Of a stretch of 24,343 nt of DNA, positions 1 to 24,343 are shown piece by piece. The position numbers and the translations under genes are program-made. Each line of letters starts with the position of its first letter. Positions within the stretch are counted from its first letter, which is position 1. The stretch covers positions 1-24,343 of IMG/VR virus record IMGVR_UViG_3300034418_000325. One strand, 5' to 3'. The notes beneath the pieces were generated by a model. It was not told the DNA's origin. It saw only the letters and a program-made list of their open reading frames with translations, and made no database searches. Origin of the DNA: a virus.

Positions 1-1083
1 TCAAAGGTTGAGGTTGATAACGACTTTGTGCAGAGTTCTAAAGAAGTTGAGGTTGTGTTTTCTCCTTCTCCGTTAGTGAATGACAACCCATCGAACCGAA
101 TCATTCCAGCAATTTGGGACGCTGATATTGAAGAAGGAGCAAAGCCAACAGACGCAAATATTCGGATTCTTTACTATGGCGGCTTAATACCAAGCGACCC
201 GACTTGGGTGCATCGAAGAACGATAAACCTACAAGACACATTTAACTCGACCTATCCATACGCGGGACATTGGGACGAGCCGATAACGCCAACAGTTGAC
301 ATTAACTTCGGATTGCCTTACGAACTCTACTATCAAGCAAATAGTTACACGGGTACGGTTCAGGTAACGAACGCGAATCTCTTTAACATCTACCACCGAA
401 ACTATATCAACGAGGTAACGGATAAGGACTCGAAGGTTATGACTGGGCTTTTTTACTTAGAGCCGACCGACATTAACACGCTTGACTTTCGCGACCAGAT
501 TGTAATTGATAACGCTTACTGGAGGCTCAACAAGGTAATGAACTACAACCCTTTCAAGGAGGGATTAACGAAAGTGGAATTGATAAAAATCAAAGAACCC
601 GTTACCTTCCAAGAGGCAAGCAAGAGCCTGAACGCAAGCGGTTACTTAGGACTGGAAAGACTGCCCAACCCATCGACTGAAATAAAGACCAACGGCAACA
701 AGTACCCACCGTTTCAGGGAAAGGTTAGCGGAGCGGAGAACGTAGTCGGACAGAGCGTTACGGCTTTCAAGGTAGTTGGTAGCCGCAACACAATCGGAGA
801 GGGTTCTAAAAACATTACAATCTTCGGAAACGACAATGAAGTTCAGGGCGGTCTATTCAACGTGCAACTGATAAACACGAACGGGGTTATTGTAACTGAG
901 TCAAACGTTACTTATGTAAACGGCAAAGAACAAGACAACGTTGAAGTTTTGGAAGGCGGAGAGAATGAAGTCCGGGCGTTGAATGGAGGAACTAACATCT
1001 TCACGGTTGACGGAGGCGAGGACATAGTTCAGACACAATTTTCTGAAATAGCTATTTACTTAATAGAAGGCGGAGAAAACTAA
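1..1083 (+). CDS. Baseplate/tail structural protein with beta-helix-like C-terminus (5' partial)
   Basis: The frame is open from the first base, so the gene starts before the window; the GTG at 28 is only an internal codon. About 360 residues are visible. The first ~215 resemble a long tail or baseplate protein type I associate with Bacteroidota phages (short aromatic stretches such as RILYYGG and YPYAGHW). The last ~130 are rich in G, N and V in short repeats (VVGSRNTIGEG, ITIFGNDNEV), as expected of a right-handed beta-helix or carbohydrate-binding stack. The stop overlaps the next start (TAATG). A virion role is an inference from this fold pattern and from the tail genes beside it; the exact position in the tail is unknown. 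Confidence 0.7.
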   Translation, partial: SKVEVDNDFVQSSKEVEVVFSPSPLVNDNPSNRIIPAIWDADIEEGAKPTDANIRILYYGGLIPSDPTWVHRRTINLQDTFNSTYPYAGHWDEPITPTVDINFGLPYELYYQANSYTGTVQVTNANLFNIYHRNYINEVTDKDSKVMTGLFYLEPTDINTLDFRDQIVIDNAYWRLNKVMNYNPFKEGLTKVELIKIKEPVTFQEASKSLNASGYLGLERLPNPSTEIKTNGNKYPPFQGKVSGAENVVGQSVTAFKVVGSRNTIGEGSKNITIFGNDNEVQGGLFNVQLINTNGVIVTESNVTYVNGKEQDNVEVLEGGENEVRALNGGTNIFTVDGGEDIVQTQFSEIAIYLIEGGEN

Positions 1084-1661
1084 TGGCAACACAAGACTCA
1101 CGGATTAAGATTAAACGGTCAACAGTAACGGCAACCGTTCCAACCGTACCAAGTAGCAACGACCATACGGACGGCACTTGGACGGCTACCGATATTTACA
1201 AAGGCGAGTTATTTTTCAATCAAGCGGACGGAGTTCTTTGGTCAAGAGACGACAACGTAGTTGTTTGTTTAGGAGGTTCGGCTTCTGTTGAGTTAACACC
1301 AGCGCAAGTAAAAACTCTGAACACTACACCTATTACCATAGTCGGAGCGGTTAGCGGTTACGCTATTGAGGTAATTTCTGCAAGTGTTAAGATTGCATTC
1401 AACACAACGGCATACGCAACCAATACGAGTTTGCATTTGCACATTGACGGAGCAGATGACAATGTTGGGCAAATAGGCAACAACATTCTTCTTGCAACCG
1501 TTGACCAAATTAGTTCAGCTTATGCACCTTCCAACCCTTCAAGCGGTCAAACTCAAGTATTGACCAATGCGGCTCTGCAAGTGAAAGCGGCAAACGGAGA
1601 CCCAACAACTGGAGACTCGACCGTAACCGTTTACGTTAATTACAGATTGATACCAGCTTAA
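1083..1661 (+). CDS. Tail-fibre-like virion protein
   Basis: 192 residues. The N-terminus has the layout common at the start of phage fibre and adhesin proteins: a basic IKIKRS segment, a GELFFNQADGVLW segment (the 'GE-x-N-x-DG-x-LY' type repeat) and then a glycine-rich turn. The remainder (residues ~70-190) is T, V, N and A rich with alternating hydrophobic residues, suggesting an all-beta fold. There is no signal peptide or membrane segment. The gene starts in a TAATG overlap with the preceding baseplate-like gene and ends in the same kind of overlap with the tape-measure-like gene, so the three are probably co-translated. Receptor binding is plausible but not shown; it could equally be a tail decoration protein. 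Confidence 0.6.
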   Translation: MATQDSRIKIKRSTVTATVPTVPSSNDHTDGTWTATDIYKGELFFNQADGVLWSRDDNVVVCLGGSASVELTPAQVKTLNTTPITIVGAVSGYAIEVISASVKIAFNTTAYATNTSLHLHIDGADDNVGQIGNNILLATVDQISSAYAPSNPSSGQTQVLTNAALQVKAANGDPTTGDSTVTVYVNYRLIPA

Positions 1662-3406
1662 TGGCGACCAAAGTAGCAATAGAAGTAGACGTTAAAACGG
1701 GCGAAGCCAACGACGACATTATTGCGTTAAGGGAAGAACTCGAAAAGGTTAAGCAGACTCAAAAGGAAATGAGCGACCAGTTCAAGGCTGGTTTCGAGGC
1801 GGCAGAAAAAGGAGCCAAAGGAGCGTCTAAGGGAATGACGGGCTTCGGTAACTCAATCGGAGGAGTTCTGAAGTCGTTGGGTCTTGTTGCTATTGCGGCA
1901 GAGGTCTTTATGTTCATTCGTGATTTACTTATGAAGAATCAAGCGGTTATGGACGCGTTCAACACCGCGACTATTGCGTTTGAGATAATTGTAAAAAAGC
2001 TATTCGACACGGTTTCAGGGTTGGTTACACCAATGAAGGAAGCCTTCGAGAACCCGCTTGAATCACTTAAAGCAATAGGCTCATTTATCAAAGAGCGGCT
2101 TGTTGTAATTATTGGAGGCTTCGTTAACCAGTTTATCGCTTTGGGCGATATTATGAAGGCGGCTTTCGAGTTAGACTGGGACGGAGTAACGAAAGGAGCG
2201 GAGAAGTTCGGAGAGGCGGTTGTTCAGACTTTCACGGCAACAACCAAACAAGAACGAGCCAGTCTTATTGAGTCGGTTACTGAGTTCGCAAATGAAACTA
2301 TCAAAGCAACGAAAGCGGCAGTTGACCAAGCGGACGCACTCGTTAAACTTCGCAACGAGGTTAAACTACTGGAAGCCGACCAAAGGGCTTTAATTTTAGT
2401 ACGACAAAAAGAAGCCGAAGAACAAAGGCAAATTCGAGACGATATTACCAAGACACTCGCTCAAAGAATTGAAGCCAACGAGAAACTCGGAAAGATACAA
2501 GCGAAGCAATTAGAGGAGGAAACCGCGATTGCAAACAAGCGAATTGAGTTAGCAGAAAGAGAACTTGCACTTGATAAAAATAACGTTGACCTACAAGTCG
2601 CACTTAAAGACGCAAGAACAGAACTCGCAGACGTTGAGGAACGAATAGCGGGGCAAAAGTCCGAGCAATTAACGAATCAAGTCGCGCTCGAAAAAGAACT
2701 CTTTGACCTACAAACAGAACTCGCAAAAGTAGGTAAGGAGCAACGGGAACTTGAGTTCCTTGAACTGGAGCAATATTATGCGGCTCTTGAAGAACAAGCC
2801 CGGTTAGCTGGAGACACGACAACCGACATTGAAGGGGCAAAACAAGAAGCACTCGCGAAACTCCGCAAGAAGTTCAGGGACGAAGATTTAAAGAATGAGA
2901 AGAAGCTACGGGACGACAAGATAAAACTTCAACAAGACTATCTTAGCGCGGCTGGTGGAGTTCTCGGAGCGATTGACCAACTTGTCGCGGCAAGTGGTCA
3001 GAACTCAAAGGAGGCGGTCGCATTACAGAAAACTCTTGCTATTGCTCAGATTGCTATTGATACGGCAAAGGCGATAGTCGGGGCGATTGCTCAGGCTCAG
3101 AGCGTACCTTATCCGGGCAACCTTGTCGCGATTGCTACGGGAGTCGCGGCAGTTGTCGCGGGTATTGCTTCGGCAGTTCAAACGCTTAACACGGCAGACG
3201 TTCCCGGAGGTTCAGCACCACCACCACAAGCACCGCAAACGGCAACCGCTCCAGCTATTCAACAAGCGACTGCGGGGACTACGGAACTCGGAGGAGTCGA
3301 ACAAGCACAACTTGCACCGATACAAGCTTATGTCGTTGAGACAGAAGTAACGGGCAACCAAAACAACGTTAATCAAATAGAATCACAAGCAACATTCGGA
3401 GGATGA
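1661..3406 (+). CDS. Tape-measure-like tail protein
   Basis: 581 residues with tape-measure architecture: a short polar start, a glycine/hydrophobic stretch at ~60-90, a second hydrophobic block near 145-160, a long charged coiled coil (~215-440, rich in E, K, L, A and Q), a hydrophobic Ala/Ile-rich helical part (~455-525), and a Pro/Ala/Gln-rich low-complexity tail. Tape measure proteins fill the tail tube and set its length; at the usual ~0.15 nm per residue this would mean a tail somewhat under 90 nm. It sits at the end of the tail genes and its stop overlaps the protease start (ATGA). It is short for the family, so a different coiled-coil tail or ejection protein is possible. Confidence 0.65.
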   Translation: MATKVAIEVDVKTGEANDDIIALREELEKVKQTQKEMSDQFKAGFEAAEKGAKGASKGMTGFGNSIGGVLKSLGLVAIAAEVFMFIRDLLMKNQAVMDAFNTATIAFEIIVKKLFDTVSGLVTPMKEAFENPLESLKAIGSFIKERLVVIIGGFVNQFIALGDIMKAAFELDWDGVTKGAEKFGEAVVQTFTATTKQERASLIESVTEFANETIKATKAAVDQADALVKLRNEVKLLEADQRALILVRQKEAEEQRQIRDDITKTLAQRIEANEKLGKIQAKQLEEETAIANKRIELAERELALDKNNVDLQVALKDARTELADVEERIAGQKSEQLTNQVALEKELFDLQTELAKVGKEQRELEFLELEQYYAALEEQARLAGDTTTDIEGAKQEALAKLRKKFRDEDLKNEKKLRDDKIKLQQDYLSAAGGVLGAIDQLVAASGQNSKEAVALQKTLAIAQIAIDTAKAIVGAIAQAQSVPYPGNLVAIATGVAAVVAGIASAVQTLNTADVPGGSAPPPQAPQTATAPAIQQATAGTTELGGVEQAQLAPIQAYVVETEVTGNQNNVNQIESQATFGG

Positions 3407-3963: not shown

Positions 3964-3992
3964 GTGGCACAATACAAACACTTTGCTATTTA
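3964..3992 (+). promoter_or_regulatory. Phage-type promoter P1 (GTGGCAC / TTTGCTATTTA)
   Basis: GTGGCACAA begins at 3964, directly after the protease stop, and CTTTGCTATTTA ends at 3992. The same two blocks occur at 6308 and 19575 with identical spacing (GTGGCAC start to TTTGC start 18 nt; GTGGCAC to the YATTTA hexamer 16 nt). It lies 43-15 nt before the scaffold ATG at 4007. The spacing suits a -35/-10 pair of the sigma-70 class; the TTTG part alone also resembles a Bacteroidota -7 element, but no -33 TTG is in place. Promoter function is inferred from the repeated motif and position. Confidence 0.7.
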
Positions 3993-4006
3993 CTAAAAAA
4001 TTACCT

Positions 4007-4633: not shown

Positions 4634-4654
4634 CCAAAAAAACACTATACAAAA

Positions 4655-5647
4655 ATGGGATTTTCACCATCACCACTAACGAGCGTACTTCAGGCTTATA
4701 TTGAAGAGCAGAATTATCCACTAATCGCGAAGGCGTTAACATCTTCGCCAACTATGGCACTTGCTGAAAAGCAACTAAACGTAAAAGGCAAGAGTGCTAT
4801 CAACTTAGCTGATATTGACGTAACCTTCCAAGACGGAAGCGGTTGCGCTTGGAACGAGGACGGAGACATTACTCTGACTCAGAGATTTATCGACCCAGCG
4901 AAATTGAAGTTGAACATGGAGTTCTGCCCGAAAGAATTGGAGGCTATCTACCTTAGAACTCAACTTCCAAGCGGAGCGCACCAAGAAGCTATTCCTTTCG
5001 AGGAGTTCTTTTCTGATTACTTAGTAAGCAAGATTGCGGCTGAGTTGGAAAAAATGATTTGGAAGTCTGTTGGTTCAACTCCGACTTCATCACTTCCTAC
5101 TGGTTCGGGTAACTTCCAATTCTTTAACGGTTTCCGTGACGCGATTCTTGGAGGTTCTTACATCGATGCAAACACCGCTAACCACGGTTCGGGTACGCCA
5201 TTGACTGCACTTAACGCCACAACGATGCTTGAGGCAGTTCAGAGAGTTTACGAAGCGGCTGCGGATGCAGTTGTTGAGAGCGATGACGCAGTTGTATTCG
5301 TATCTGCAACTAAATTCAGAAGCCTTGCCATTGGAATCCAAAACGGTCTTGGTTCTTTCGTAAGCGATGGAGGTCAGCTACAAGGTTACCAAACTGAAAT
5401 GGGTGGTTTGTCAATGGTTATGCCGGGAACAAACTTGAGAATCCAAGCTACAAGCGGACTTAGCGGAACTGAGGATGTTTACCTTGCTCGTACTAGCAAT
5501 ATGTTCATTGGAATGGACTTGGAAGAAGATGCTTCACGCATCGAATCTTGGTACTCTCAAGATGACCGTAAATTCAAAATTGCGGTCGAAATGACAGTTG
5601 GCGCACAAGTGGCGTTCCCAGACCAAATATCGGTTATCAATATCTAA
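4655..5647 (+). CDS. Major capsid protein (HK97-fold type)
   Basis: 330 residues. Position (protease, scaffold, then this gene) and composition fit an HK97-fold capsid subunit: an N-terminal helical arm, an E-loop/P-domain-like middle, an ATKFRSLAIGIQ helix near 220, and a C-terminal strand run (DRKFKIAVEMTVGAQVAFPD) typical of the family's A-domain end. It would assemble the icosahedral head after scaffold removal. Codon use is markedly regular (many gga, aac, gtt, ctt), as expected of a highly expressed gene. It is served by promoter P1 and followed by a strong UUCG hairpin at 5654, which may protect or end its message. Confidence 0.85.
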   Translation: MGFSPSPLTSVLQAYIEEQNYPLIAKALTSSPTMALAEKQLNVKGKSAINLADIDVTFQDGSGCAWNEDGDITLTQRFIDPAKLKLNMEFCPKELEAIYLRTQLPSGAHQEAIPFEEFFSDYLVSKIAAELEKMIWKSVGSTPTSSLPTGSGNFQFFNGFRDAILGGSYIDANTANHGSGTPLTALNATTMLEAVQRVYEAAADAVVESDDAVVFVSATKFRSLAIGIQNGLGSFVSDGGQLQGYQTEMGGLSMVMPGTNLRIQATSGLSGTEDVYLARTSNMFIGMDLEEDASRIESWYSQDDRKFKIAVEMTVGAQVAFPDQISVINI

Positions 5648-5653
5648 TTTAAC

Positions 5654-5673: not shown

Positions 5674-5695
5674 TTCACTCCAAAAAAAAAACAAA

Positions 5696-6217: not shown

Positions 6218-6233
6218 AAAGCTATCTTTGCTC

Positions 6234-6256: not shown

Positions 6257-6274
6257 CATAGTTCTGTTGGAGAT

Positions 6275-6802: not shown

Positions 6803-7185
6803 TAAACATCGAACGAAATAGTGCTAACGAGATAGCCTTAACTCTCACCGAGAGAGGCACGGCTACCTATTACCTCTTCAAGTTCCAATCGGATAACACG
6901 GAGGCAGTAAAGTATTGCATTGCAACGGATTCAAGCGCATATCCCGAAAGGTTTAACAAGTTCACAATTACAGAACAGACAAGCCCTGACAACTTGAACG
7001 CGGAGGTCGAACTACCAACCGAAGGACAATGGCGATATTTTGTTTATGCTAACTCTTCAAGTTCAAACCTTGACCCGACTGGGTTGTTAGAATTAGAAAG
7101 CGGAATTGTGAAAGTAACGGGAACACAAACACCAGTTACCAGCTACTCAGGCGGTAACTCAACTTATGTAGTTTATGGGTCTTAA
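6799..7185 (+). CDS. Small virion protein, unrecognised (TTG start)
   Basis: 128 residues. The start is TTG at 6799, overlapping the previous stop as TTGA; no ATG gives a sensible alternative, and MINIERNSANEIALTL at the front looks like a genuine N-terminus. Predicted beta strands (TYYLFKFQS, WRYFVYANSS) and an S/T/G-rich C-terminus fit a small immunoglobulin-like or decoration-type virion protein. The gene overlaps the portal start by 11 nt. The function is not known; location in the P2 structural operon is the main evidence. Confidence 0.55.
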   Translation: MINIERNSANEIALTLTERGTATYYLFKFQSDNTEAVKYCIATDSSAYPERFNKFTITEQTSPDNLNAEVELPTEGQWRYFVYANSSSSNLDPTGLLELESGIVKVTGTQTPVTSYSGGNSTYVVYGS

Positions 7186-9259
7186 AGTATTGAACTTCGG
7201 AGCGCACAAAGTGCCGACCTTCAAGGAGGCAAGGGGAAAGGATTGGATTCTATTCGGAGATGAAGGGGAATACAAAAACCGTTACCCAGAGTACCTTCTG
7301 AACCTTTACAGAAGAAGCGCGAAAAACCACGCGATTATAAACTCCAAAAAGGATTATGTTGTCGGTCAGGGCTGGGCAATAGACAAGGAAGGACTCGACA
7401 CGCTTGGACTTGCACGGCTTCAACAGTTCGTTGAGGAGCCTAACCAATACGAGTCTTTAAACGACATCTTGGAGAAGGTCGCACTCGATTACGAACTTTA
7501 TAACGGCTTTGCTCTTGAGATTGTTTACAACCAGCTTAACGACAAGATTGCGGCTATTTATCACGCAGACTTTGCAAGGTATCGAAGCAACGAGGACGGT
7601 TCTTGTTATTACTATTCTGAAGATTGGGGAAAGCATAACCCAGTAGTTGAGAAGATTGACGCTTTTGACTGGAAGAACCCAAGCGGCAAACAGTTACTTT
7701 ACGTTAAAGGTTACTCTCCTGACTGCAAGTACTACCCACTACCGACCTACTTAGGTTCAACGGGTTACATTGAACTCGATGTTGAGATTGCAAACTTCCA
7801 TTTAAACGCGGTCAAGAACAACTTTGTCGGTGGCACTATTGTATCTTTTTACAATGGAGAACCAACGCAAGAGGAACAAGAGGAAATCGAGCGACAGATA
7901 AAGGACAAGTTCACGGGAACGGATAACGCTAACTCAATAGTGTTAAACTTCGCGGACTCAAGAGACAGAGGAGTAGAGATTCAGCAGTTAAACGGTAACG
8001 ACTTCGACAAGCGTTTTGATATTCTAAACAAGACCGTACAACGTGAAATTTACGCGGGGCATCAAGTAACCGACCCGGCACTATTCGGAATCAAGGAGGA
8101 CGGAATATTTACAAGCCGAAACCAGTTGGTAGACTCCTTTGAGTTGTTCCAAAACACCTATGTAAACAACCGTCAACAATTCATTGAGCGAGTGTTCAAC
8201 GAGTTGGCGGCTTTGCAAGGCTTGAAAAACTGCCTATACATTCAAGACACCGAACCGATAAGCGTTCAATTCTCAGAGGCAACGGTTACTTCGGTAATGA
8301 CAGAATCGGAAATACGTGAGAAAGTAGGGCTACAAGTTGTTCAAACTGAGGAGGATTCTACGGTTGACAGCAAGACCAAAGACGCTCAGGCTGCACTTAA
8401 AGGCTCTGTCGGTGGTGTTACTGGAATCATTACACTACTTCAAAACGTTAAAGAGGGACTTATCGCAGAAGCTTCGGCTATCTCAGTTCTTACCGAGTTG
8501 TACGGATTCACTCCTGAGACTGCAAGGGCTACGGTTACGGGCGAAGTTATACCTGAGAACGTGGCGGCAGAGATGCGCTCAGTATTTGAGAAGCAAGACG
8601 AGGACGCTATTCTAATTGAATACTTTAAGAACTGCGGCTCTACGGATTACGAGCCAGTAGGAAACGGCAAGGCGTTAAACTTTGAAAGTGAAACCTCCGC
8701 GAAACTACACGAGGAACTTAATCGAAAGTATTGGTTTGCTGAAGTAGACCCGATTGATACGGCTATTCTGAACGTATTAAAAGAGAACCCATCGACTCCG
8801 TTTATCGCAATCGCAGAGCAGTTACAACTTTCAATTGAGAGGGTTATGGCTGGACTTCAGGCATTGAACGAAGCGAACGCCATTAAGATAGCAATAGACG
8901 AAGTTCTCGACTCAACTCAAAGATTGGTTGAAGTAACCGAAGAAGGCGAACGACTACTTGAGGAAATACCACCAGTTGAGGAGGAGTTTGTAATTCGTTA
9001 CTTCTATGCTTTGAGACCTGAAGCTGGAGGCAGACAAGACGGAAGCATTGAGTCTGACTTCCTTATTCCAACGAGTAGAAAGTTCTGCGAAGATATGCTT
9101 GAACTCCGAAAGGAAGGGAAAACTTGGAAACTAACCGAGATTCAGAATTTAGGCGTTAGTCAGAACCGTAACGTTTGGATGCGAGGCGGTGGCTTTTGGG
9201 GCAAGTCTTACCATTGCCGACACTACTGGGAGCAACAACTTATGAGAATTAAGAAGTAA
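7175..9259 (+). CDS. Portal protein fused to winged-helix and MuF-like C-terminal regions
   Basis: 694 residues. The first ~400 match an HK97-type portal: an early YRRSAKNHAIINSKKDYV segment, a YELYNGFALEIVYN strand, and the DRFD-like NDFDKRFDILNKTVQREI helix followed by GIKEDGIFTSRNQLVDSF. The portal is the dodecameric ring through which DNA enters the head. Residues ~525-571 look like a winged helix (ILNVLKENPSTPFIAIAEQL then a recognition-type helix). Residues ~603-694 carry the SRKFCEDML ... RGGGFWG ... HCRHYWEQ pattern typical of SPP1 gp7/MuF head morphogenesis domains. The fused C-terminus would replace a separate minor head protein, and none is seen nearby. Confidence 0.8.
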   Translation: MGLKVLNFGAHKVPTFKEARGKDWILFGDEGEYKNRYPEYLLNLYRRSAKNHAIINSKKDYVVGQGWAIDKEGLDTLGLARLQQFVEEPNQYESLNDILEKVALDYELYNGFALEIVYNQLNDKIAAIYHADFARYRSNEDGSCYYYSEDWGKHNPVVEKIDAFDWKNPSGKQLLYVKGYSPDCKYYPLPTYLGSTGYIELDVEIANFHLNAVKNNFVGGTIVSFYNGEPTQEEQEEIERQIKDKFTGTDNANSIVLNFADSRDRGVEIQQLNGNDFDKRFDILNKTVQREIYAGHQVTDPALFGIKEDGIFTSRNQLVDSFELFQNTYVNNRQQFIERVFNELAALQGLKNCLYIQDTEPISVQFSEATVTSVMTESEIREKVGLQVVQTEEDSTVDSKTKDAQAALKGSVGGVTGIITLLQNVKEGLIAEASAISVLTELYGFTPETARATVTGEVIPENVAAEMRSVFEKQDEDAILIEYFKNCGSTDYEPVGNGKALNFESETSAKLHEELNRKYWFAEVDPIDTAILNVLKENPSTPFIAIAEQLQLSIERVMAGLQALNEANAIKIAIDEVLDSTQRLVEVTEEGERLLEEIPPVEEEFVIRYFYALRPEAGGRQDGSIESDFLIPTSRKFCEDMLELRKEGKTWKLTEIQNLGVSQNRNVWMRGGGFWGKSYHCRHYWEQQLMRIKK

Positions 9260-10274: not shown

Positions 10275-10540
10275 TGACTGAATCACAAAAACTAATCGGC
10301 TCAAGAGGCTCTAAAGTTCTAACGGGAACGGGAGCGCATACTTCACTAACGGGATACTCTATTATCGTCCAAGAGGACACGGTAATAACTACGTTTGAAG
10401 TTGACGGGGCTGACGCTCTTGCGGCTTACGGATTAAGCGGAGCAACCCTTAAAGCTGGAGCGTACATCGTTGTGCCGACTGGCGATAACATTACCGCGTT
10501 AACAATGTCAAGCGGAAGCGTTATCATTTATAACCAATGA
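10274..10540 (+). CDS. Small virion-associated protein, unrecognised
   Basis: 88 residues, mostly short beta segments separated by glycine (SKVLTGTGAHTSLTGYSIIVQEDTVITTFEVDG), with a hydroxyl-rich end (ALTMSSGSVIIYN). There is no membrane segment or known motif. It starts in a TAATG overlap after the neck-like gene and its stop overlaps the next start (ATGA), linking it to the repeat protein downstream. I read it as a small accessory virion protein, perhaps a base or adaptor for the next protein. Confidence 0.5.
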   Translation: MTESQKLIGSRGSKVLTGTGAHTSLTGYSIIVQEDTVITTFEVDGADALAAYGLSGATLKAGAYIVVPTGDNITALTMSSGSVIIYNQ

Positions 10541-11535
10541 TAGGCGTTGCCAAAATAGGGACTCGCGCAAGTCGCGGAGGTGGCGGTGCGCCATCGGTTA
10601 ACCCCGACTTTGTATCTACTTGGAACGTTGCTTCGGATGGCGAAACGGTAACTTTGCCGTTGCTATCGGGTGGCGTGTATTCGGGTACGATTGATTGGGG
10701 AGATGGTGGCGCAACTTCAGTTCTTAGCTTTGCGAACAAAGCGCACGTTTATACAACTGCGGGAACTTACACAATAACCATTTCGGGAAGTGATATACAA
10801 GGGTTCCAATTCAACAACGGTGGAGACAAGGCGAAAATTACGGACGTTAGTAATTGGGGCAACTTAACTATCACAACTAACAAGTCATTTTTTGGATGTT
10901 CTAATTTGTTAGTAAGTGCAACGGATGCTCCAACAATTACAACAACAGACCTACAAAGTACCTTTAGAGCGACAGACTTAACGGGTGCAGACCTAACTTC
11001 TTGGGATGTTAGCGGTGTTACGAATTTTCTTGGCTGTTTTTATCAGTCAGATTTTGAAGGCGGAAATGTTAGTAATTGGGATGTTTCAAGTGGCGTTGAA
11101 TTTGAATCATGCTTTGGCTTTTCAAATTTTGACGGGGATGTTTCAAATTGGAATTTGGCAAGCGCATCACAAGTTGATTTTATGTTCTACACAACTCCAA
11201 ACTTCAATTCAGATATAACTATAACAAGTGCGACAACTAACGTGACATCAATGCTACAGAGAGCACCGTTGTTCGACCAAGATATAAGCAACTGGAGCGT
11301 TACACAGATTACTTCATTTGGGAATTTTATGGCGGGAGGCGGCATTGGTTCACCAACACTTTCAACTGCTAATTATGATGCTCTTCTAATAGCGTGGGAT
11401 GCTCAAGGAGCAATGAGTTATAGCGGAACGGTTAACTTTGGTGGAAGTCAATATACATCTGGTGGTGCGGCAGAGGCGGCAAGAACCAGTTTAATAAGCA
11501 AATGGGGAGGAATAACCGACGGAGGCGCGGCATAA
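10537..11535 (+). CDS. Host-contact protein with PKD-like domain and DUF285 (BspA-like) repeats
   Basis: 332 residues. After a Gly-rich leader (residues 13-19), residues ~25-85 form a PKD-like beta-sandwich (GTIDWGDGG ... HVYTTAGTYTITISG). Residues ~95-265 contain DUF285/BspA-type repeats, recognisable by recurring LTSWDVSGVTNF, VSNWDVSS, VSNWNLAS and ISNWSV units. The end is low-complexity G, A and S. These modules are found in surface-binding proteins, so a tail-tip or head-surface adhesin is likely. Compared with flanking genes the repeat part is visibly more AT-rich and uses more ttt and aat codons, which hints at acquisition from another source. There is no signal peptide. Confidence 0.7.
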   Translation: MIGVAKIGTRASRGGGGAPSVNPDFVSTWNVASDGETVTLPLLSGGVYSGTIDWGDGGATSVLSFANKAHVYTTAGTYTITISGSDIQGFQFNNGGDKAKITDVSNWGNLTITTNKSFFGCSNLLVSATDAPTITTTDLQSTFRATDLTGADLTSWDVSGVTNFLGCFYQSDFEGGNVSNWDVSSGVEFESCFGFSNFDGDVSNWNLASASQVDFMFYTTPNFNSDITITSATTNVTSMLQRAPLFDQDISNWSVTQITSFGNFMAGGGIGSPTLSTANYDALLIAWDAQGAMSYSGTVNFGGSQYTSGGAAEAARTSLISKWGGITDGGAA

Positions 11536-15138: not shown

Positions 15139-15768
15139 ATGGAGAATATTTTTGAAGCAATTAGCGACACACAACAACGAACTGAAGAATGGCACGAGCA
15201 ACGAATGGGGAAGTTTACGGCTTCCCGGTTCGGGGACTTGATGACCAACTCAAGAAAGAAAGACGAAGTTCTCGGAGCGACTGCGGTCAGCTACATTTAC
15301 GAGAAGGCGGCAGAACTTCTAACGGGAGAACGCAAGGAAATCTTCGGAGCGGCTCTTGATTGGGGCAACGAATACGAGCCTATTTGCAAGGCTTACTATT
15401 CAGAACTGAAAGGCGTTACCATTGAGGAAATGCCATTCGTTCCGATTAACGACTACTCAGGCGCAAGCCCGGACGGTATGGTGGACGGAGAACTCATTGA
15501 GATTAAATGCCCGTACAACACCGCGAACCATCTCAAGACTGCCTTTGAAGGTTACATCGACCCGAAGTATGTTTGGCAGATGCAAGGGCAGATGTTAGCA
15601 ACTGGCGCGTTAGCTTGTCGGTTCTTATCATTCGACCCGCGCATAAAAGACGAGCGGTTTAAACTCATCGAGATTAGAGTAGAAGCCGACCTTGAGATGC
15701 AAGAGAAACTCCGGGAAAGGCTGGAGTTCGCAAACGATTATTTACGTAACCTTTTAAACTCTAAATAA
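15139..15768 (+). CDS. YqaJ-like viral exonuclease
   Basis: 209 residues with the PD-(D/E)XK set of the YqaJ/lambda exonuclease family: an N-terminal EEWHEQRMGKFTAS motif, GNEYEP (E80), GASPDG (D112), EIKCP (E121-x-K123) and the WQMQGQML helix (Q147-Q151). Such enzymes chew one strand of linear duplex DNA to make single-stranded ends for annealing during phage recombination or concatemer repair. The neighbours (annealase-like candidate upstream, SSB-like protein two bases downstream) form a typical two-component recombination set. All catalytic residues are present. Confidence 0.88.
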   Translation: MENIFEAISDTQQRTEEWHEQRMGKFTASRFGDLMTNSRKKDEVLGATAVSYIYEKAAELLTGERKEIFGAALDWGNEYEPICKAYYSELKGVTIEEMPFVPINDYSGASPDGMVDGELIEIKCPYNTANHLKTAFEGYIDPKYVWQMQGQMLATGALACRFLSFDPRIKDERFKLIEIRVEADLEMQEKLRERLEFANDYLRNLLNSK

Positions 15769-15769
15769 A

Positions 15770-16063
15770 ATGCAGAACAAAGTAATTTTTGTAGACGGCT
15801 TGAACGTCTTTGAACCTAACGAGAACGCTCCTGAATGGATAAAAGCGGACATGGTTATAAACCCGACTCAGTTGGTTAAATGGCTGGAGCAGAACGACCA
15901 GCACCTCCGCGAAGGAAAGCGCGGTCTTGAGTTACGACTTCAGATTAAGAAGTCAGCACAAGGCAAACTTTATGCGGCAGTTGACACCTATCAACCTAAG
16001 CTAAAAGAGGAAGTAACTTCTAAACAAGCAGTCGTTGAAGAAGAAAGCGACCTCCCGTTCTAA
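15770..16063 (+). CDS. Atypical single-stranded DNA-binding protein
   Basis: 97 residues. An N-terminal VIFVDGLNVFEPNENAPEW segment and beta stretches (LELRLQIKKSAQGKLYAAVDTY) suggest a small OB-type or beta fold. The end EEESDLPF mimics the acidic hydrophobic tip of bacterial SSB (D-D-I-P-F), which docks partner proteins. Placement between the exonuclease and the NinG-like nuclease supports ssDNA binding. It is shorter than a usual SSB, so the fold assignment is tentative while the tail motif is clear. The next gene begins 29 nt before its stop. Confidence 0.65.
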   Translation: MQNKVIFVDGLNVFEPNENAPEWIKADMVINPTQLVKWLEQNDQHLREGKRGLELRLQIKKSAQGKLYAAVDTYQPKLKEEVTSKQAVVEEESDLPF

Positions 16064-16430
16064 AATTGTCAAAGAGTTGGACAAGGCATTCAGTCGGTAT
16101 ATCCGATTGAGTGCTTCCAACCTTGACGGTTATTGTGAGTGCTACACTTGCGGACGTTCTTACGAACTAAAGAAAATGCAATGCGGACACTTTATGAGCA
16201 GAGCAAGGTACGCGACAAGGTGGCACGAGGACAACTGCCGACCGCAATGCTACGGGTGCAACGTAATGCAGCAAGGAAGACAGTACGACTTCGGTTTGAA
16301 CCTTGACCGGGAACGCGAAGGACTGGCGGAGGAGATGCACGAACTCAGCTTAACGACCGTCAAGTTTGCAACGTGGGAACTAGAAGAGAAACTTGCCTAC
16401 TATCGACAGAAGGTTCGGGAACTGGAATAA
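16035..16430 (+). CDS. NinG-like HNH recombination nuclease (TTG start)
   Basis: 131 residues. The start is TTG at 16035; the first in-frame ATG lies inside the zinc domain, so a non-ATG start is required. The pattern C36-x-x-C39, GHF (H52), DNCRPQC (C72-x-x-C75) followed by Asn76 matches the lambda NinG (Rap) family, which binds and cuts Holliday junctions and other branched DNA. Residues ~85-131 form a charged helical tail. It closes the recombination operon. The overlap with the SSB-like gene suggests coupled translation. NinG identity comes from the residue spacing, not a search. Confidence 0.78.
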   Translation: MKKKATSRSKIVKELDKAFSRYIRLSASNLDGYCECYTCGRSYELKKMQCGHFMSRARYATRWHEDNCRPQCYGCNVMQQGRQYDFGLNLDREREGLAEEMHELSLTTVKFATWELEEKLAYYRQKVRELE

Positions 16431-18573: not shown

Positions 18574-18644
18574 GCAAGTGGAAGATTAGAGTTCTCGATT
18601 TTATAATGCTAACTTTAGGATACGAGAGAGATGAAGAAGTTTAG
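18570..18644 (+). CDS. Very short ORF (24 residues) bridging two genes
   Basis: ATG at 18570 overlaps the DnaA-like stop (ATGA) and the ORF ends 14 nt inside the methyltransferase gene. It encodes a basic-to-acidic peptide with a hydrophobic middle (VLDFIMLTLG). The overlaps on both sides suggest it may serve for translational coupling across the 57-nt gap; whether the peptide matters is unknown. Confidence 0.3.
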   Translation: MSKWKIRVLDFIMLTLGYERDEEV

Positions 18645-19302
18645 GGTTTTGAATTTGTACGCTTGTTTAGGCGGCAATCGATACAAGTGGGACGAAGTAG
18701 CTGAAGAAGCCAACGTAGATATACAAGTTACTGCGGTAGAGTTAGATGAAGAACTTGCTAAGTTATATCAAGAGCGATTCCCAAACGACACGGTTATCGT
18801 GGCAGACGCTCACCAATACTTACTTGACCACTACCAAGAGTTCGATTTTATTTGGACTTCACCGCCTTGTCCGACACACTCAAGAGCAAGGTTTTGGGGC
18901 TTTGGCGCAAATGGAAAGATGCCAGTTTATCCCGATATGAAACTTTACGAAGAGATAATTTTCTTACAACATCACTTCAAGGGGCAGTACGTCGTTGAGA
19001 ATGTCGTTCCGTATTATGACCCATTGATGAACCCAGTAACAAGAGATAGGCACTTGTATTGGGCGAACTTCGCAATTCCAAACGATGTTAGCGCAAGGCA
19101 TTTCGATGGACTTTGTCAAACGAAAAACGAAGTTGATAAGCTATGCGAGTTTCACGATTACGACTTTAGAAAATACAAGGGCGGTCAGTTGCTTAATAAA
19201 GTTGCTCGTAACCTTGTTGATTACGAAGTCGGTCGAACAATCTTCGAAACTGCTCTCGGAATTGTAAGGAAGAAAGACGTAACACAAACTGAGTTGTTCT
19301 AA
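18631..19302 (+). CDS. C5-cytosine DNA methyltransferase
   Basis: 223 residues with core motifs of the C5 family: an AdoMet-binding start (VLNLYACLGGN, motif I), TAVELDE (motif II), the catalytic PPCPTHS (Cys80, motif IV), and VVENV (E123-N124, motif VI). It is shorter than typical restriction-linked enzymes, with a small target-recognition part, and no restriction endonuclease lies nearby, so it is an orphan phage methylase. It would protect phage DNA against host restriction or mark it. The target cannot be read from sequence. Its stop overlaps the next start (TAATG). Confidence 0.88.
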   Translation: MKKFRVLNLYACLGGNRYKWDEVAEEANVDIQVTAVELDEELAKLYQERFPNDTVIVADAHQYLLDHYQEFDFIWTSPPCPTHSRARFWGFGANGKMPVYPDMKLYEEIIFLQHHFKGQYVVENVVPYYDPLMNPVTRDRHLYWANFAIPNDVSARHFDGLCQTKNEVDKLCEFHDYDFRKYKGGQLLNKVARNLVDYEVGRTIFETALGIVRKKDVTQTELF

Positions 19303-19603: not shown

Positions 19604-19605
19604 CT

Positions 19606-19735: not shown

Positions 19736-19738
19736 ATT

Positions 19739-20458: not shown

Positions 20459-21005
20459 TCTTGTAAGCACAATTACACAACTGCCGTCAATGGTCGGTTG
20501 TCAGGAGTTTCCAAACTCTCCGCAAGGAATGAACCTTATTAAACTGATTCAGGACTTCATAAACGAGGAATACAAGTACAATAGCGAAACGGTAAGAAAA
20601 GCGTTTATGTTGGCGGCAAAGCAAGAACTCTATCTTGATAACAAACGAATAGACGCTTCGACATTCGGGCAACACTTGAGCGTTAACGTAGTCGGTAAGG
20701 TTCTGACGGCTTACAAAGAACACATAAGGAAAGGGAACGCGCGACCGGGCTACAATCAAAACCAACTACCCGAAGCACCAGTAAAGAAGATAACACCAGC
20801 CGAAGCGTGGGACTTGGTTCTCAAGTGGTTTAAAGAAGAAGGGCAACCTCCGCAGTTCGCGCCTTACTTATCGGCTTATGAATACCTTCTAAGCAACAAC
20901 CAAGTGAAACCAGTTAAACACTCAACCAAGAAGTTCGGGAACTTTGACGAAGATTGCCCCGAACGGTTATCGGTTGAAAGGTATCTTTTACAACATTGTA
21001 AATAA
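20451..21005 (+). CDS. Replication-associated protein, possible helicase loader
   Basis: 184 residues, beginning 8 nt inside the initiator gene. Helical throughout, with FINEEYKYNSETVRKAFMLAAK, a middle basic segment (YKEHIRKGNARPGYNQNQ) and a C-terminal PAEAWDLVLKWFKEEG region. No ATP-binding motif is visible, so it is not a DnaC-type ATPase. Its position right after the initiator matches lambda P, the loader that brings host helicase; that is an inference from gene order. No polymerase or helicase gene is seen in the window, so host enzymes are presumably used. Confidence 0.5.
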   Translation: MYNLVSTITQLPSMVGCQEFPNSPQGMNLIKLIQDFINEEYKYNSETVRKAFMLAAKQELYLDNKRIDASTFGQHLSVNVVGKVLTAYKEHIRKGNARPGYNQNQLPEAPVKKITPAEAWDLVLKWFKEEGQPPQFAPYLSAYEYLLSNNQVKPVKHSTKKFGNFDEDCPERLSVERYLLQHCK

Positions 21006-21022
21006 ATACTTAACTTGCGAAA

Positions 21023-21547
21023 GTGAAACAACAAGCCGCAATCGACCTACTTGCAGACGAGGAACTCCACGAACTCGCGGATAAGTTGTGCAACTGCCCG
21101 GACGACTTGATTCAGGAAGTCGCAATGGTTCTACTGGAGATGACCGAAGAGAAATGGAATCAGATTAACGAAGGCGGTTACTTGCGGTTTTACGTGGTTA
21201 GAACAATGATGACAATGGCGACCAGTCCGCGTTCCAGCTTCTCGAAACTCTACGACCTCCACAACCATAAGAAGGTTGACCACGAGAGAGAGGACTACGA
21301 TTGGGAAAAAGAAGAGGACATTTCGTTGATTGAAACACTTATGCAAGAGTTGCATTGGTACGACCGCGAAGTTCTTAAACTATGGCTGGAAGAAGGCAGT
21401 TACAGAAAGGTCGCGAAGAAGGTGGGCATACCTTACAAGAGCATCGGCAACACCGTAAAGAAAACAATAGAAACACTTAGAGCGAATTACTATGGAATAC
21501 ATCTTGAGCGCATTATCCGGGAGCGTGTTAAGCTTCCTTTGGATTGA
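21023..21547 (+). CDS. Sigma-factor-like protein (region 2 and region 4 pattern)
   Basis: 174 residues, GTG start. Residues ~15-80 resemble sigma region 2 (PDDLIQEVAMVLLEM, then GGYLRFYVVRTMMTM). An acidic linker (~85-103) follows. Residues ~104-155 resemble region 4 (LMQELHWYDREVLKLWLEEGS, then the HTH RKVAKKVGIPYKSIGNTVKK). The two-domain size and spacing are those of an ECF-type sigma factor. If so, it would steer host RNA polymerase to phage promoters, and the repeated GTGGCAC/YATTTA promoters are the obvious candidates. Region 2 is weaker than region 4, so a simple HTH regulator is an alternative. Confidence 0.65.
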   Translation: MKQQAAIDLLADEELHELADKLCNCPDDLIQEVAMVLLEMTEEKWNQINEGGYLRFYVVRTMMTMATSPRSSFSKLYDLHNHKKVDHEREDYDWEKEEDISLIETLMQELHWYDREVLKLWLEEGSYRKVAKKVGIPYKSIGNTVKKTIETLRANYYGIHLERIIRERVKLPLD

Positions 21548-21743
21548 AGTCTTTGGCATTGACCTACTTCTAAAAAAGTGGCTTGGAATGAACGAGAGCC
21601 AGTCTTTTAAGCCGTTAGACTGTCGGCTTTGTTTGTCGTTTTGGTTTGGAGTTCTTTACTGCGCTAACGACCCGGAGGCACTTCTTTACGTTCCTCTCCT
21701 GAGTGTTTTGTTTGAGCGGTTAATGTGGAGGTTTGAAATATGA
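21492..21743 (+). CDS. Small membrane protein with C-x2-C-x3-W motif (DUF1360-like)
   Basis: 83 residues. An N-terminal hydrophobic helix (ILSALSGSVLSFLWIEVFGIDLLL) and a second one (~48-75) flank DCRLCLSFWFG, where C44, C47 and W51 recall the C-P-x-C-x-x-x-W motif of DUF1360 membrane proteins. The start overlaps the sigma-like gene by 56 nt, long but the only ATG before the first helix. Function unknown; membrane placement is clear. Confidence 0.55.
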   Translation: MEYILSALSGSVLSFLWIEVFGIDLLLKKWLGMNESQSFKPLDCRLCLSFWFGVLYCANDPEALLYVPLLSVLFERLMWRFEI

Positions 21744-21823
21744 GCGATGCAGTTACATTCTGTTGCATATTGCTTTTATTGGTTTGGATTGTACGAATTT
21801 TAAAAGGAGAAAATTTTAACTAA
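21740..21823 (+). CDS. 27-residue transmembrane peptide
   Basis: ATG at 21740 overlaps the previous stop (ATGA) and the stop overlaps the next start (TAATG). The peptide is one helix (VTFCCILLLLVWIVRIL) with a short polar tail. Junctions on both sides match those of the neighbouring real genes, which supports translation. Too short to assign a function; small phage membrane peptides can be holin-related or exclusion factors. Confidence 0.5.
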   Translation: MSDAVTFCCILLLLVWIVRILKGENFN

Positions 21824-22065
21824 TGGACAAAAAACAACTTTTGCTATTTATCAAAGAGAGGCACGAGGCACTAAGTAGAATGAAAGCCGCGAAGTTCTCA
21901 GGACGAATAACACGAGAAGAACAGAAACTTTACCAAGATGCTTGGTCGTACATTGACCCGAAAGCAAAGGTTTGTTTTACTTGTGGAAGGAGTCCGCAGA
22001 TTATGAGTGTTGCTCTTCTGAACTATTACGAAGCCAACAAACCAAAGAGACGCAAAAAGAAGTGA
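21823..22065 (+). CDS. Small basic protein with one C-x-x-C motif
   Basis: 80 residues. Helical N-terminal half (LLLFIKERHEALSRMKAAKFSG, EEQKLYQDAW), a single CFTCGRS pair near residue 51, and a KPKRRKKK tail. The basic end and cysteine pair would suit nucleic-acid binding. The start sits in a TAATG overlap. Bases 21838-21850 in this gene resemble the CTTTTGCTATTTA half of promoter P2, but the upstream GTGGCAC is missing. Function unknown. Confidence 0.5.
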   Translation: MDKKQLLLFIKERHEALSRMKAAKFSGRITREEQKLYQDAWSYIDPKAKVCFTCGRSPQIMSVALLNYYEANKPKRRKKK

Positions 22066-22406
22066 AGTATAACAACGACTTTCGACACGACTTAGAAGTC
22101 GGGCAACTCGGAGAGAAGCTACTGGCGGACATCTTAGAGAACCGAACCATTGAAGTAAAGAAAGACTTGAAAGCAACGCAAACGGGAAACGTGTTTATTG
22201 AATACTCTTCACGAGGCAAGCGTTCCGGGCTTTCGACTTCTGAAGCTGACTACTGGGCTTTGATAGTTTCGGAGAATGTTATTAAATTAGTCAAGACTGA
22301 CTTTTTAAAAGAACTATGCCGAACGTATCTTGGAACTAAACGAGACGTTCTCGGAGGAGACAACGACACGAGCAAAGGCATACTTTTACCAATCTCAGAA
22401 ATATGA
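22062..22406 (+). CDS. PD-(D/E)XK-like nuclease (GTG start)
   Basis: 114 residues from GTG at 22062, overlapping the previous stop as GTGA. An upstream in-frame ATG at 21972 would overlap the preceding gene by 94 nt and add a non-matching leader, so I reject it. The pattern LEVGQLGEKLLADIL, TIEVKKD (E31-x-K33), TGNVFIEYSSRGKRSGLS and EADYW resembles small phage endonucleases of the PD-(D/E)XK fold related to Holliday-junction resolvases. It may resolve branched DNA before packaging or attack host DNA. The exact substrate is unknown. Confidence 0.65.
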   Translation: MKYNNDFRHDLEVGQLGEKLLADILENRTIEVKKDLKATQTGNVFIEYSSRGKRSGLSTSEADYWALIVSENVIKLVKTDFLKELCRTYLGTKRDVLGGDNDTSKGILLPISEI

Positions 22407-22594
22407 GAGAGAACAAGCAACACGAAAATTACGGGCTTTACATTACTCAAAACACGTATACGATGGAGTTCTATTGCTTCAGTAGAGAAGCCGCAGACGA
22501 CTACTGGAACGGTAACCCGTGTAAGAAAGCAAAAGGAAAGACGAGTCACGAGGCTCTAAAAAATTACAAGAATGGATTATATTGCGATAAGTAA
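22403..22594 (+). CDS. Small protein of unknown function
   Basis: 63 residues, basic and aromatic (NYGLYITQNTYTMEFYCFSREAADDYW cut to its key Y, F and W residues; then CKKAKGKTSHEALKNYKNG). It resembles small RNase-H-fold or double-stranded-RNA-binding-like accessory peptides only vaguely; no family is claimed. It starts in an ATGA overlap with the nuclease and overlaps the ParB-like gene by 23 nt. Confidence 0.45.
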   Translation: MRENKQHENYGLYITQNTYTMEFYCFSREAADDYWNGNPCKKAKGKTSHEALKNYKNGLYCDK

Positions 22595-23102
22595 GGTTAG
22601 ACCAAACTCGGACAACCCGCGTTACATCAAGGACGAGAAGTTTAAGAAGTTGGTTCAATCGCTCCGGGACTTTCCTGAGATGGCTAACGTCCGACCGATA
22701 GTCGTTAACAAAGAGATGATAGTCCTGGGCGGTAATATGCGCTTAAAGGCAATGCAAGAAGCTGGATGGTCAGAGGTACCCGTTCAAGTTGTTGATTGGT
22801 CAGAAGAAAAACAGCGCGAGTTCATCATCAAAGACAACGTAGGGTTTGGAGAATGGGACTGGGACGAGTTGGCGAATACTTGGAATGAAATGGAATTAGA
22901 TGCTTGGGGTTTAGATGTTCCGAACTTTCTTGAAATGCCGACAGATGAAGATTTGATAGGAGAAGAAAAGAACAAACCAGCGACTATGAAAATAACATTC
23001 ACAAGCCCCGAACAACTGCAAAGTGCTGAGATTGACATTCAAGAACTACTTGACCGAAAGTATCAAGGTGCGTTCTTTTCCGTAAGTGCTGGAGAGATAT
23101 GA
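22572..23102 (+). CDS. ParB/sulfiredoxin-like nuclease-fold protein
   Basis: 176 residues. Residues 1-90 show the ParB N-terminal domain pattern: IAISKVRPNSDNPR, PIVVNKEMIVLGGNMRLKA (52-61, corresponding to the G-G-x-R nucleotide-binding box) and EVPVQVVDWSEEKQREFIIKDN. The C-terminal half (TMKITFTSPEQLQSAEIDI ...) is a separate small domain. ParB-fold phage proteins bind or cleave nucleotides and are often found beside DNA methylases and terminases. Here the Mom-like gene follows directly (ATGA). A role with Mom in DNA modification is possible but unproven. Confidence 0.75.
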   Translation: MDYIAISKVRPNSDNPRYIKDEKFKKLVQSLRDFPEMANVRPIVVNKEMIVLGGNMRLKAMQEAGWSEVPVQVVDWSEEKQREFIIKDNVGFGEWDWDELANTWNEMELDAWGLDVPNFLEMPTDEDLIGEEKNKPATMKITFTSPEQLQSAEIDIQELLDRKYQGAFFSVSAGEI

Positions 23103-23683
23103 GATTAGAAAAGGCATCATATAAAGCAGTAAAATACGCTTGCTTAAAGTTTCACTATGCAAAAGTCTGCCCGGTTGTTGGAATTGCTTTTTCAGTATTC
23201 AATAAAAGTAATCAATGGTGTGGAGTGATTACATTTGGATATGGTGCCTCAGCAAATATGGGTAAGCCATACGGATTAAAGCACGGACAATACTTGGAAC
23301 TAACAAGGATGGCTTTGAATGGTAAGCAAGAGAGCACATCAAAAGCAATGGCTATTGCAATGAAGTTAATTAAGAAGAAATGCCCAACAGCAAAGCTGTT
23401 AATTAGCTATGCAGACAAAGGTCAGAATCATAAAGGTATTATTTATCAAGCTACAAATTGGCATTTAGTAGATGAAAGTGAAAGCTCAGGCAATGAGGTA
23501 TTTTATAAAGGTAAATGGGTACACGATAGAGGACCAAATACATTGCCAAAAGAACAGAGAGAAAAACTAACATACAGGAAGAAAAGCGGAAAATACAAAT
23601 ACGTCTACCCACTTGACAAATCTTTAGTACCTTTATGCCAGTCGCTGGCGAAACCATATCCAAAAAATGCGTCAGAAGTGTAA
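23099..23683 (+). CDS. Mom-like DNA adenine modification protein
   Basis: 194 residues. The pattern LKFHYAKVCPVVGIAFSVF, a QYLELTRMALNG strand-helix (64-75) and LLISYADKGQNHKGIIYQ plus ATNWHLVDE (100-126) matches the Mom family of GNAT-fold enzymes. In phage Mu, Mom adds a methylcarbamoyl group to adenine and so protects DNA from many restriction enzymes. The C-terminus is basic. Base use is clearly more AT-rich than in neighbouring genes (many aaa, tat and att codons), suggesting recent arrival. It follows the ParB-like gene in an ATGA overlap, and its last codons form part of the tRNA at 23669. Confidence 0.75.
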   Translation: MRLEKASYKAVKYACLKFHYAKVCPVVGIAFSVFNKSNQWCGVITFGYGASANMGKPYGLKHGQYLELTRMALNGKQESTSKAMAIAMKLIKKKCPTAKLLISYADKGQNHKGIIYQATNWHLVDESESSGNEVFYKGKWVHDRGPNTLPKEQREKLTYRKKSGKYKYVYPLDKSLVPLCQSLAKPYPKNASEV

Positions 23684-23738
23684 TGGTTGCACATTCTACT
23701 TCCAGTAGAAAGGAGGAGTTCGATTCTACCCTGACGCT
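23669..23738 (+). tRNA. tRNA-Gly, anticodon UCC
   Basis: GCGTCAG (23669-23675) pairs 7/7 with CTGACGC (23731-23737). The D-arm GTGT-AATGGTT-GCAC is the usual tRNA-Gly form, the anticodon stem TTCTA/TAGAA is perfect, and the loop CTTCCAG gives anticodon TCC (23701-23703), reading GGA. The T-loop TTCGATT is standard, but the T-stem has two mismatches or a bulged A, the variable loop is short, and position 8 is A rather than U. TCACCA follows. Function may be weakened. GGA is visibly the favourite glycine codon here, so a supplement makes sense. It starts 15 nt inside the Mom-like gene. Confidence 0.72.
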
Positions 23739-23761
23739 CACCAAACAACGAAATAACAGCG

Positions 23762-24163
23762 ATGCCAAACCCTGAGAACATAGAACAGCACAAGTTCAAG
23801 AAAGGACAGAGCGGCAACCCGAAAGGGCGACCGAAGAACGTGGAGACGCTTCTAAAAGAACACTTCCTTGATGAGCATAACGTCAAACTCTCCAAGTCTC
23901 AGGTTCAGGACATAATCAAGAACGTACTGGGCAAGTCCCGGAGCGAGTTGGTGGAGTTGGCAAAGAATGACGAACTTCCGTTTTGGATTGCTCTCATTGC
24001 TAAGAAAGCGCAGAGGGACTACGAGAAGGGTTCGATTCATATTCTCGATGTTCTCTTTGACCGGGTTTACGGCAAACCGAAAGAGGAGGTTGAGCAGACT
24101 GTCAACGGTGGAAAGCCTGACCGAATAGACGTTATTATTCACGAGCCAAAGGATGACAATTGA
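23762..24163 (+). CDS. Terminase small subunit candidate (DUF5681-like)
   Basis: 133 residues opening with FKKGQSGNPKGRPK, the hallmark of DUF5681 proteins. A helical middle (LLKEHFLDEHNVKLSKSQ, FWIALIAKKAQRDYEKGS) and a YGKPKEEVEQTVNGG end follow. The terminase large subunit gene starts 11 nt before its stop, the standard neighbour of a small subunit, which recognises phage DNA and starts packaging. Small subunits vary widely, so context is the main support beyond the DUF motif. Confidence 0.75.
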   Translation: MPNPENIEQHKFKKGQSGNPKGRPKNVETLLKEHFLDEHNVKLSKSQVQDIIKNVLGKSRSELVELAKNDELPFWIALIAKKAQRDYEKGSIHILDVLFDRVYGKPKEEVEQTVNGGKPDRIDVIIHEPKDDN

Positions 24164-24343
24164 CGGAACGAGAGTTTTTCGCAAACTATGGAACGCGCTT
24201 AATGATAAATCAGTTCGGGGAATTGTTTTGGAAGGTGGCTCACGTTCCTCGAAAACGTGGTCAATCTGTCAAGCGTTGCTCCTACTTGGTACGCAAACAC
24301 CGCAGAGATTCGCGATTGCAAGGTGGCGCAGAACGTGGATTAA
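24153..24343 (+). CDS. Terminase large subunit (3' partial)
   Basis: The ATG at 24153 overlaps the small-subunit gene by 11 nt and the frame stays open to the window edge (63 residues visible). Residues ~24-33 (VLEGGSRSSKTWS) hold the Walker A ATP-binding loop in the GGSRSSKT form common in phage large terminases, followed by a LLLLGT helix and RFAIARWRRT, the expected adenine-binding/Walker region spacing. This is the ATPase-nuclease motor that packs DNA through the portal. The rest lies outside the window. Confidence 0.88.
   Translation, partial: MTIDGTRVFRKLWNALNDKSVRGIVLEGGSRSSKTWSICQALLLLGTQTPQRFAIARWRRTWI

What the first reader, a model, noticed from the sequence alone, without database searches (positions are those of the whole stretch)
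1..24343. No GATC and no GGCC site in the whole window
Reading through all ATC and GCC triplets, I found none preceded by G in either case. A 24 kb sequence would hold about 95 copies of a 4-base site at equal base frequencies, and still some 50 GGCC at this moderate GC. Other palindromes such as TCGA, AGCT, GTAC and CCGG are present. Complete loss of two sites points to long exposure to restriction systems cutting GATC and GGCC. It also suggests that the phage's own modification does not cover these sites.
Basis: seen in the sequence. Interest (0 to 1): 0.74.

Follow-up and report, generated by a model that had tools for sequence, protein, structure and literature searches.

The report
Flavophage genome stripped of restriction sites
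This piece of a virus of marine bacteria has lost every copy of two short DNA words, GATC and GGCC, and nearly all copies of a dozen more, most likely because its bacterial hosts carry enzymes that cut DNA at those words; this is a known strategy, seen here in an unusually complete and readable form.

Summary
They are not the only missing words. CTAG, CATG, CGNCG, CASTG, GCWGC, CCWGG, GTSAC and GGWCC are nearly gone, and total 6-bp palindromes are 122 against 323. The window is a fragment of a tailed phage related to Nonlabens phage P12024, so the host is probably a marine flavobacterium. Relatives avoid different, changing sets of words. GATC is lost in 51 of 81 related records and GGCC in 40 of 57. 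Host type II restriction is the best explanation. The phage also encodes a Mom-like DNA modifier and a short cytosine methylase, but GATC/GGCC avoidance does not follow these genes. The unexpected part: CCGG survives only inside CCSGG (28 of 28 sites; other contexts 0 against 31 expected), and asymmetric words such as GAGCT (3/49) and VCAGG (5/71) are also purged. These may be undescribed restriction specificities or protection rules. The core finding is a strong new example of a known kind. No host genome was available to show the matching enzymes.

The parts
1..24343 (.). Region without any GATC or GGCC on either strand
   Evidence: one search count; codon-preserving null
5493..5496 (.). one of the only two CTAG sites (the other is at 16380-16383)
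4915..4918 (.). first of seven CATG sites (others start at 11108, 15057, 15850, 16688, 17471, 19972)
7175..9259 (+). portal protein; marker used to find relatives; about 27% identical to Nonlabens phage P12024
13266..13979 (+). metallophosphoesterase, 70% identical to Nonlabens phage P12024L; points to a marine flavobacterial host
15139..15768 (+). YqaJ-like recombination exonuclease, conserved gene block shared with P12024L
16035..16430 (+). NinG/HNH-type nuclease; considered and rejected as the cause of the missing sites
18631..19302 (+). short (223 aa) C5-cytosine DNA methyltransferase; specificity unknown
22065..22406 (+). possible PD-(D/E)XK-like nuclease, of unknown function in PHROGs (phrog_13596); absent from most relatives that still avoid GATC
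   Evidence: the nuclease reading is by eye only
22572..23102 (+). ParB_N-domain protein, constant partner of an exchangeable DNA-modification gene
23099..23683 (+). Mom-like DNA modification protein (PF25680, phrog_1384)
23762..24163 (+). DUF5681 protein, probable small terminase, followed by the start of the large terminase (24153 to the window end)
   Evidence: relatives

Best explanation
The phage infects marine Flavobacteriia that, as a population, carry many type II restriction systems, among them GATC-specific and GGCC-specific ones. Genomes carrying an unmodified site are cut on entry. Mutations that remove sites are favoured, and most are synonymous. Over time the genome has lost all GATC and GGCC and nearly all sites of about ten other specificities. 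The set of avoided words follows the restriction repertoire each lineage has met, so it changes between close relatives. Shown: complete absence, statistical excess, recognition-word specificity, and turnover between relatives. Inferred: the identity of the hosts and of their enzymes, and that cutting at entry is the selective step.
For: GATC and GGCC are 0 against 58 and 27 with proteins and codon usage held fixed. The missing words match type II recognition words at fine resolution: CCWGG 3/19 but CCSGG 29/14; CASTG 2/29 but CAWTG 76/53; GCWGC 4/37 but GCSGC 47/26; GTSAC 5/24 but GTWAC 81/59. Naming these words as enzyme specificities (EcoRII, TspRI, TseI, Tsp45I, AvaII, Hpy99I) is from memory of REBASE. 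Relatives have different sets: window CGCG sites are kept at only 4 of 45 aligned positions in G008, all 21 CTAG of G008 in aligned genes are absent in the window, and window CCGG is kept at 1 of 23 positions in G002 but 9 of 23 in G008. Across 81 de-duplicated related records, GATC is lost in 51 of 81 and GGCC in 40 of 57. In G002 and G010 the few leftover GATC/GGCC sites concentrate in one variable module, as expected for recently acquired DNA. Protein relatives in the phage collection are from Nonlabens/Persicivirga, Tenacibaculum, Cellulophaga and Flavobacterium. Rusinov et al. 2018 (PMC6286503) report the same strategy, complete or almost complete in about a tenth of viral genomes.
Against: No host genome could be tied to this phage, and no GATC- or GGCC-cutting enzyme was shown in any candidate host. 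Some avoided words (DCCGGH, GAGCT, VCAGG) match no type II specificity I know. Nonlabens phage P12024L, the nearest cultured relative found, has normal GATC (80 against 65) and lacks only GGCC and CCGG-type words completely or nearly so, so GATC avoidance is not general for the wider group.
Confidence: 0.85

Rival explanations
1. A phage-encoded nuclease cuts host DNA at GATC or GGCC and the phage spares itself by lacking the sites.
For: The window encodes a NinG/HNH-type nuclease and a possible PD-(D/E)XK-like protein.
Against: The possible PD-(D/E)XK gene is absent from relatives that still avoid GATC and GGCC. P12024L and phage 11b lack GGCC without a NinG hit by tblastn. One or two nucleases cannot account for ten or more distinct words that change between lineages.
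Confidence: 0.04
2. Mutation bias, codon usage or protein composition removes these words.
For: Phage genomes have skewed word use in general.
Against: 400 codon-preserving shuffles never fell below 43 GATC or 16 GGCC. S-centred and W-centred versions of the same word behave oppositely.
Confidence: 0.02
3. The phage's own modification shapes which sites must be avoided: Mom and the cytosine methylase protect some sites, and only unprotected ones such as GATC and GGCC are removed.
For: Mom and a C5 methylase are present. GATC and GGCC lack the Mu Mom context (C/G)A(C/G)N(C/T) (from memory). CCGG is tolerated only inside CCSGG, as a CCSGG-protecting methylase would produce.
Against: Sites matching the Mu Mom context are avoided too (SAGCTS 0/18, SACGTS 1/12), and no less in the Mom carriers (window, G008) than in the relatives in which no Mom was found (G002, G007, G010). 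The CCSGG rule holds in G008, in which no C5 methylase was found and which has an adenine-type one instead. Many C5-methylase carriers avoid CCSGG. GATC and GGCC are avoided with every cassette type in the close clade.
Confidence: 0.1

Closest known systems
Restriction-site avoidance in phages (Sharp 1986; Karlin 1992; Rusinov et al. 2018, PMC6286503)
   Same: Complete loss of type II recognition words in a dsDNA phage; GATC is among the classic avoided sites.
   Different: Many words are purged at once, sets turn over between close relatives, CCGG loss depends on its flanks, and asymmetric 5-mers are purged as well.
Nonlabens (Persicivirga) phages P12024S/L (genus Inhavirus)
   Same: Same gene order from portal through metallophosphoesterase, YqaJ, methyltransferase and sigma-like gene to terminase; GGCC and CCGG words absent or nearly so.
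   Different: Proteins are only 27-70% identical; GATC is not avoided; it has a 2OG-Fe oxygenase and a different methyltransferase, and no Mom homologue is annotated.
Phage Mu Mom and Mom-like proteins (PF25680)
   Same: The window protein scores far above the Pfam cut-off (119.8 against 27.1 bits).
   Different: It is paired with a ParB_N protein and is exchangeable with methylase or glycosyltransferase genes at the same place; target specificity unknown.

Membership tests
Genome shaped by type II restriction-site avoidance | Recognition words depleted beyond base, codon and protein constraints | tested here: met
   GATC z -9.3, GGCC z -5.9, CTAG z -8.1, CATG z -7.8
Genome shaped by type II restriction-site avoidance | Depletion follows the recognition word and not palindromes in general | tested here: met
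   CCWGG low and CCSGG high; CASTG low and CAWTG high; CGCG not depleted
Genome shaped by type II restriction-site avoidance | Avoided set differs between lineages that meet different hosts | tested here: met
   (differing sets shown; differing hosts inferred)
Genome shaped by type II restriction-site avoidance | Hosts encode the matching endonucleases | not testable with these tools
   no host genome linked; genome-contig scans found no Mom relative and one misbinned-looking portal hit; the genome search would not take a taxon name as centre
Mom family (PF25680) | Profile match over the full domain | tested here: met
   E 1.5e-34, profile 5-202 of 202
Mom family (PF25680) | Adenine carbamoylmethylation activity | not testable with these tools
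   needs nucleoside mass spectrometry
C5-cytosine methyltransferase (PF00145) | Catalytic N-terminal motifs present | tested here: met
   29.5 bits against cut-off 22, residues 4-87; PPC motif visible in the translation
C5-cytosine methyltransferase (PF00145) | Full-length domain with target-recognition region | tested here: inconclusive
   only profile positions 1-78 of 324 aligned; protein is 223 aa

The most novel reading that the evidence does not exclude
The negative space of this phage clade reveals undescribed restriction specificities or protection rules in marine flavobacteria: an activity that removes CCGG except when it lies within CCSGG, and activities acting on short asymmetric words (GAGCT, VCAGG, CCAGA, ACAGC).
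Probability: 0.35. Interest if true: 0.65.

Novelty: new member of a known kind. Interest (0 to 1): 0.48.

Why it matters
Phages with such complete and varied site loss record the restriction repertoire of hosts that are hard to culture. The changing sets between close relatives could be used to infer host defences and host range from phage sequence alone. The CCGG-in-CCSGG rule and the purged asymmetric words are concrete predictions of enzymes to look for.

Tried and rejected
Phage-encoded nuclease as the cause: rejected, since avoidance persists without the candidate genes. Phage C5 methylase as the reason for CCSGG tolerance: not supported, because G008 keeps the rule with no C5 methylase found and many C5 carriers avoid CCSGG. 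Phage C5 methylase as protector of CGCG: no consistent link (10 of 41 C5-carrying contigs avoid CGCG). Mom protecting Mu-type sites: not supported. RCCGGY plus WCCGGW enzymes explaining the CCGG pattern: they leave GCCGGA/TCCGGC uncovered, yet these are also zero. The window's DNA has no megablast match among phage records. Paper searches found no prior report for this phage group.

Full report
Observation. The window has 24,343 bases, 44% G+C, and is about 96% coding by my ORF choice, all on the plus strand. It holds no GATC and no GGCC. With each protein and the codon usage held fixed, 400 shuffles gave 58.3 +/- 6.3 GATC (minimum 43) and 26.9 +/- 4.6 GGCC (minimum 16). It is not a sequencing accident of one contig: contigs that carry the same proteins at 100% identity, from three IMG/VR sample identifiers (3300007344, 3300007346, 3300025853), also lack both words.

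More words are missing. CTAG 2 (48 expected), CATG 7 (51), CGNCG 7 (72), CASTG 2 (29), GCWGC 4 (38), CCWGG 3 (19), GTSAC 5 (24), GGWCC 3 (15). All 6-bp palindromes together: 122 against 323. The loss is specific to the exact word. CCSGG, CAWTG, GCSGC and GTWAC, which differ only in the centre base, are at or above expectation, and CGCG is not depleted (72 against 60). General avoidance of palindromes or base composition cannot do this; sequence-specific enzymes can. The matching enzyme names I give (EcoRII, TspRI, TseI, Tsp45I, AvaII, Hpy99I and so on) are from memory and were not checked against REBASE here.

What the element is. G000 is a virus record equal to the window. Genes include portal, XkdF-type protease, lysozyme, metallophosphoesterase, YqaJ exonuclease, NinG, a short C5 methylase, ParB_N protein, Mom-like protein and terminase. 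Nonlabens phage P12024L has the same gene order and a 70% identical metallophosphoesterase; the next best matches to that protein are phages of Tenacibaculum, Cellulophaga and Flavobacterium. The host is therefore probably a marine flavobacterium (inference).

Relatives. Portal relatives, Mom relatives and methylase relatives were counted. Each lineage lacks its own set of words. In 81 de-duplicated records of at least 9 kb, counting only those with an expected number of 10 or more, words at 15% of expectation or less were: GATC 51/81, GGCC 40/57, CATG 47/81, CTAG 34/81, CCGG 16/46, CASTG 50/75, GGWCC 25/33, CCWGG 25/36, CGSCG 20/29, CGWCG 22/40. These records were gathered by kinship to window genes, so the fractions are not a survey of phages at large. 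Codon alignments of the window with relatives of about 75-79% nucleotide identity show removal at matching positions: 45 window CGCG sites, 4 kept in G008; 21 CTAG in G008, none kept in the window; 23 window CCGG, 1 kept in G002 but 9 kept in G008. Leftover GATC/GGCC sites in G002 and G010 concentrate in one variable module between the portal-side block and lysozyme (2 of 5 GATC in G002; 2 of 3 GATC and the single GGCC in G010), as expected for newly acquired DNA not yet cleaned.

The phage's own modification. A ParB_N gene between the sigma-like gene and the small terminase is followed by exchangeable modifiers: Mom in the window and G008, TET-associated glycosyltransferases in G002 and G007 (a weaker match to the same PHROG family in G011), and a fused N6/N4 methylase in G010. 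GATC is avoided with all of them, and GGCC with all but G011. So the avoidance does not depend on the cassette. Words that contain the Mom context known from Mu (from memory) are avoided too (SAGCTS 0/18, SACGTS 1/12), and no less in the two Mom carriers than in relatives in which no Mom was found. Contigs may be incomplete, so absence of a gene in a relative is provisional.

An unexpected rule. All 28 CCGG sites in the window lie in CCCGG or CCGGG. All other contexts (DCCGGH) are 0 against 30.9 +/- 4.8, while CCSGG is 29 against 13.9 in the coding sequence, where overlapping genes are counted twice. The same holds across the close clade (G006, G007, G008, G009, G010), while G002 and G011 have lost CCSGG as well. 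Other clades avoid both forms or tolerate both, and L079 shows the reverse. The simplest readings are a CCGG-cutting enzyme in hosts where CCSGG is protected, or an enzyme whose true specificity excludes a flanking C. The phage C5 methylase does not explain it, since G008 keeps the rule with a different methylase. Asymmetric words are purged as well: GAGCT 3/49, VCAGG 5/71 (TCAGG 49/34), CCAGA 7/39, ACAGC 9/40. The GAGCT and CCAGA depletion recurs in every full relative examined, less completely in G002 for GAGCT; the strong ACAGG and ACAGC depletion is shared with G007 and G008 only. In the wider set, CCCGC, GACGC, GGGAC, GTCTC and GAGTC appear among avoided asymmetric or 5-bp words; these match FauI, HgaI, BsmFI, BsmAI and PleI from memory, which suggests type IIS systems are part of the pressure. 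GAGCT, VCAGG and CCAGA match nothing I know and stay unexplained.

Verdict. The finding is real, and its cause is most likely restriction by host type II systems, a known strategy (Rusinov et al. 2018, read). Its completeness, its many words and its turnover make it a good example. The CCGG rule and the asymmetric words are the parts a specialist may find surprising. The missing link is the host: no matching enzyme has been shown.

Noticed in passing
window 22572-23683; L213:6224-7437; L210:1691-3245; L211:16530-17844; L215:14901-16388; L217:1-1220: A conserved ParB_N gene is followed, in related phages, by exchangeable DNA-modification genes: Mom, TET-associated glycosyltransferases, or a fused N6/N4 methylase. 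ParB may be a shared partner of these modifiers.
   Followed up: partly
window, all CCGG sites; relatives G002, G006-G011: CCGG occurs only inside CCSGG; DCCGGH is 0 against 31 expected. The rule holds across the close clade independent of the phage methylase found.
   Followed up: partly
window and G007, G008: Asymmetric 5-mers GAGCT, VCAGG, CCAGA and ACAGC are strongly depleted, while TCAGG and CCAGC are common.
   Followed up: partly
L217-L218 (contig 3300017971_000175): The 4-mer CCAG/CTGG is almost absent (2 against about 122), while ACAGG is nearly threefold enriched (136 against 46).
   Followed up: no
L079: Reverse CCGG pattern: CCSGG 0 against 5 while DCCGGH is normal (12 against 9).
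   Followed up: no
L126: A portal relative (42%) sits on a short contig of a Delaware Bay bin named Candidatus Microthrix, probably a misbinned phage contig.
   Followed up: no
window 10537-11535: DUF285/PKD repeat protein in the variable module where relatives keep several of their few leftover GATC sites; possibly a host-contact protein.
   Followed up: no
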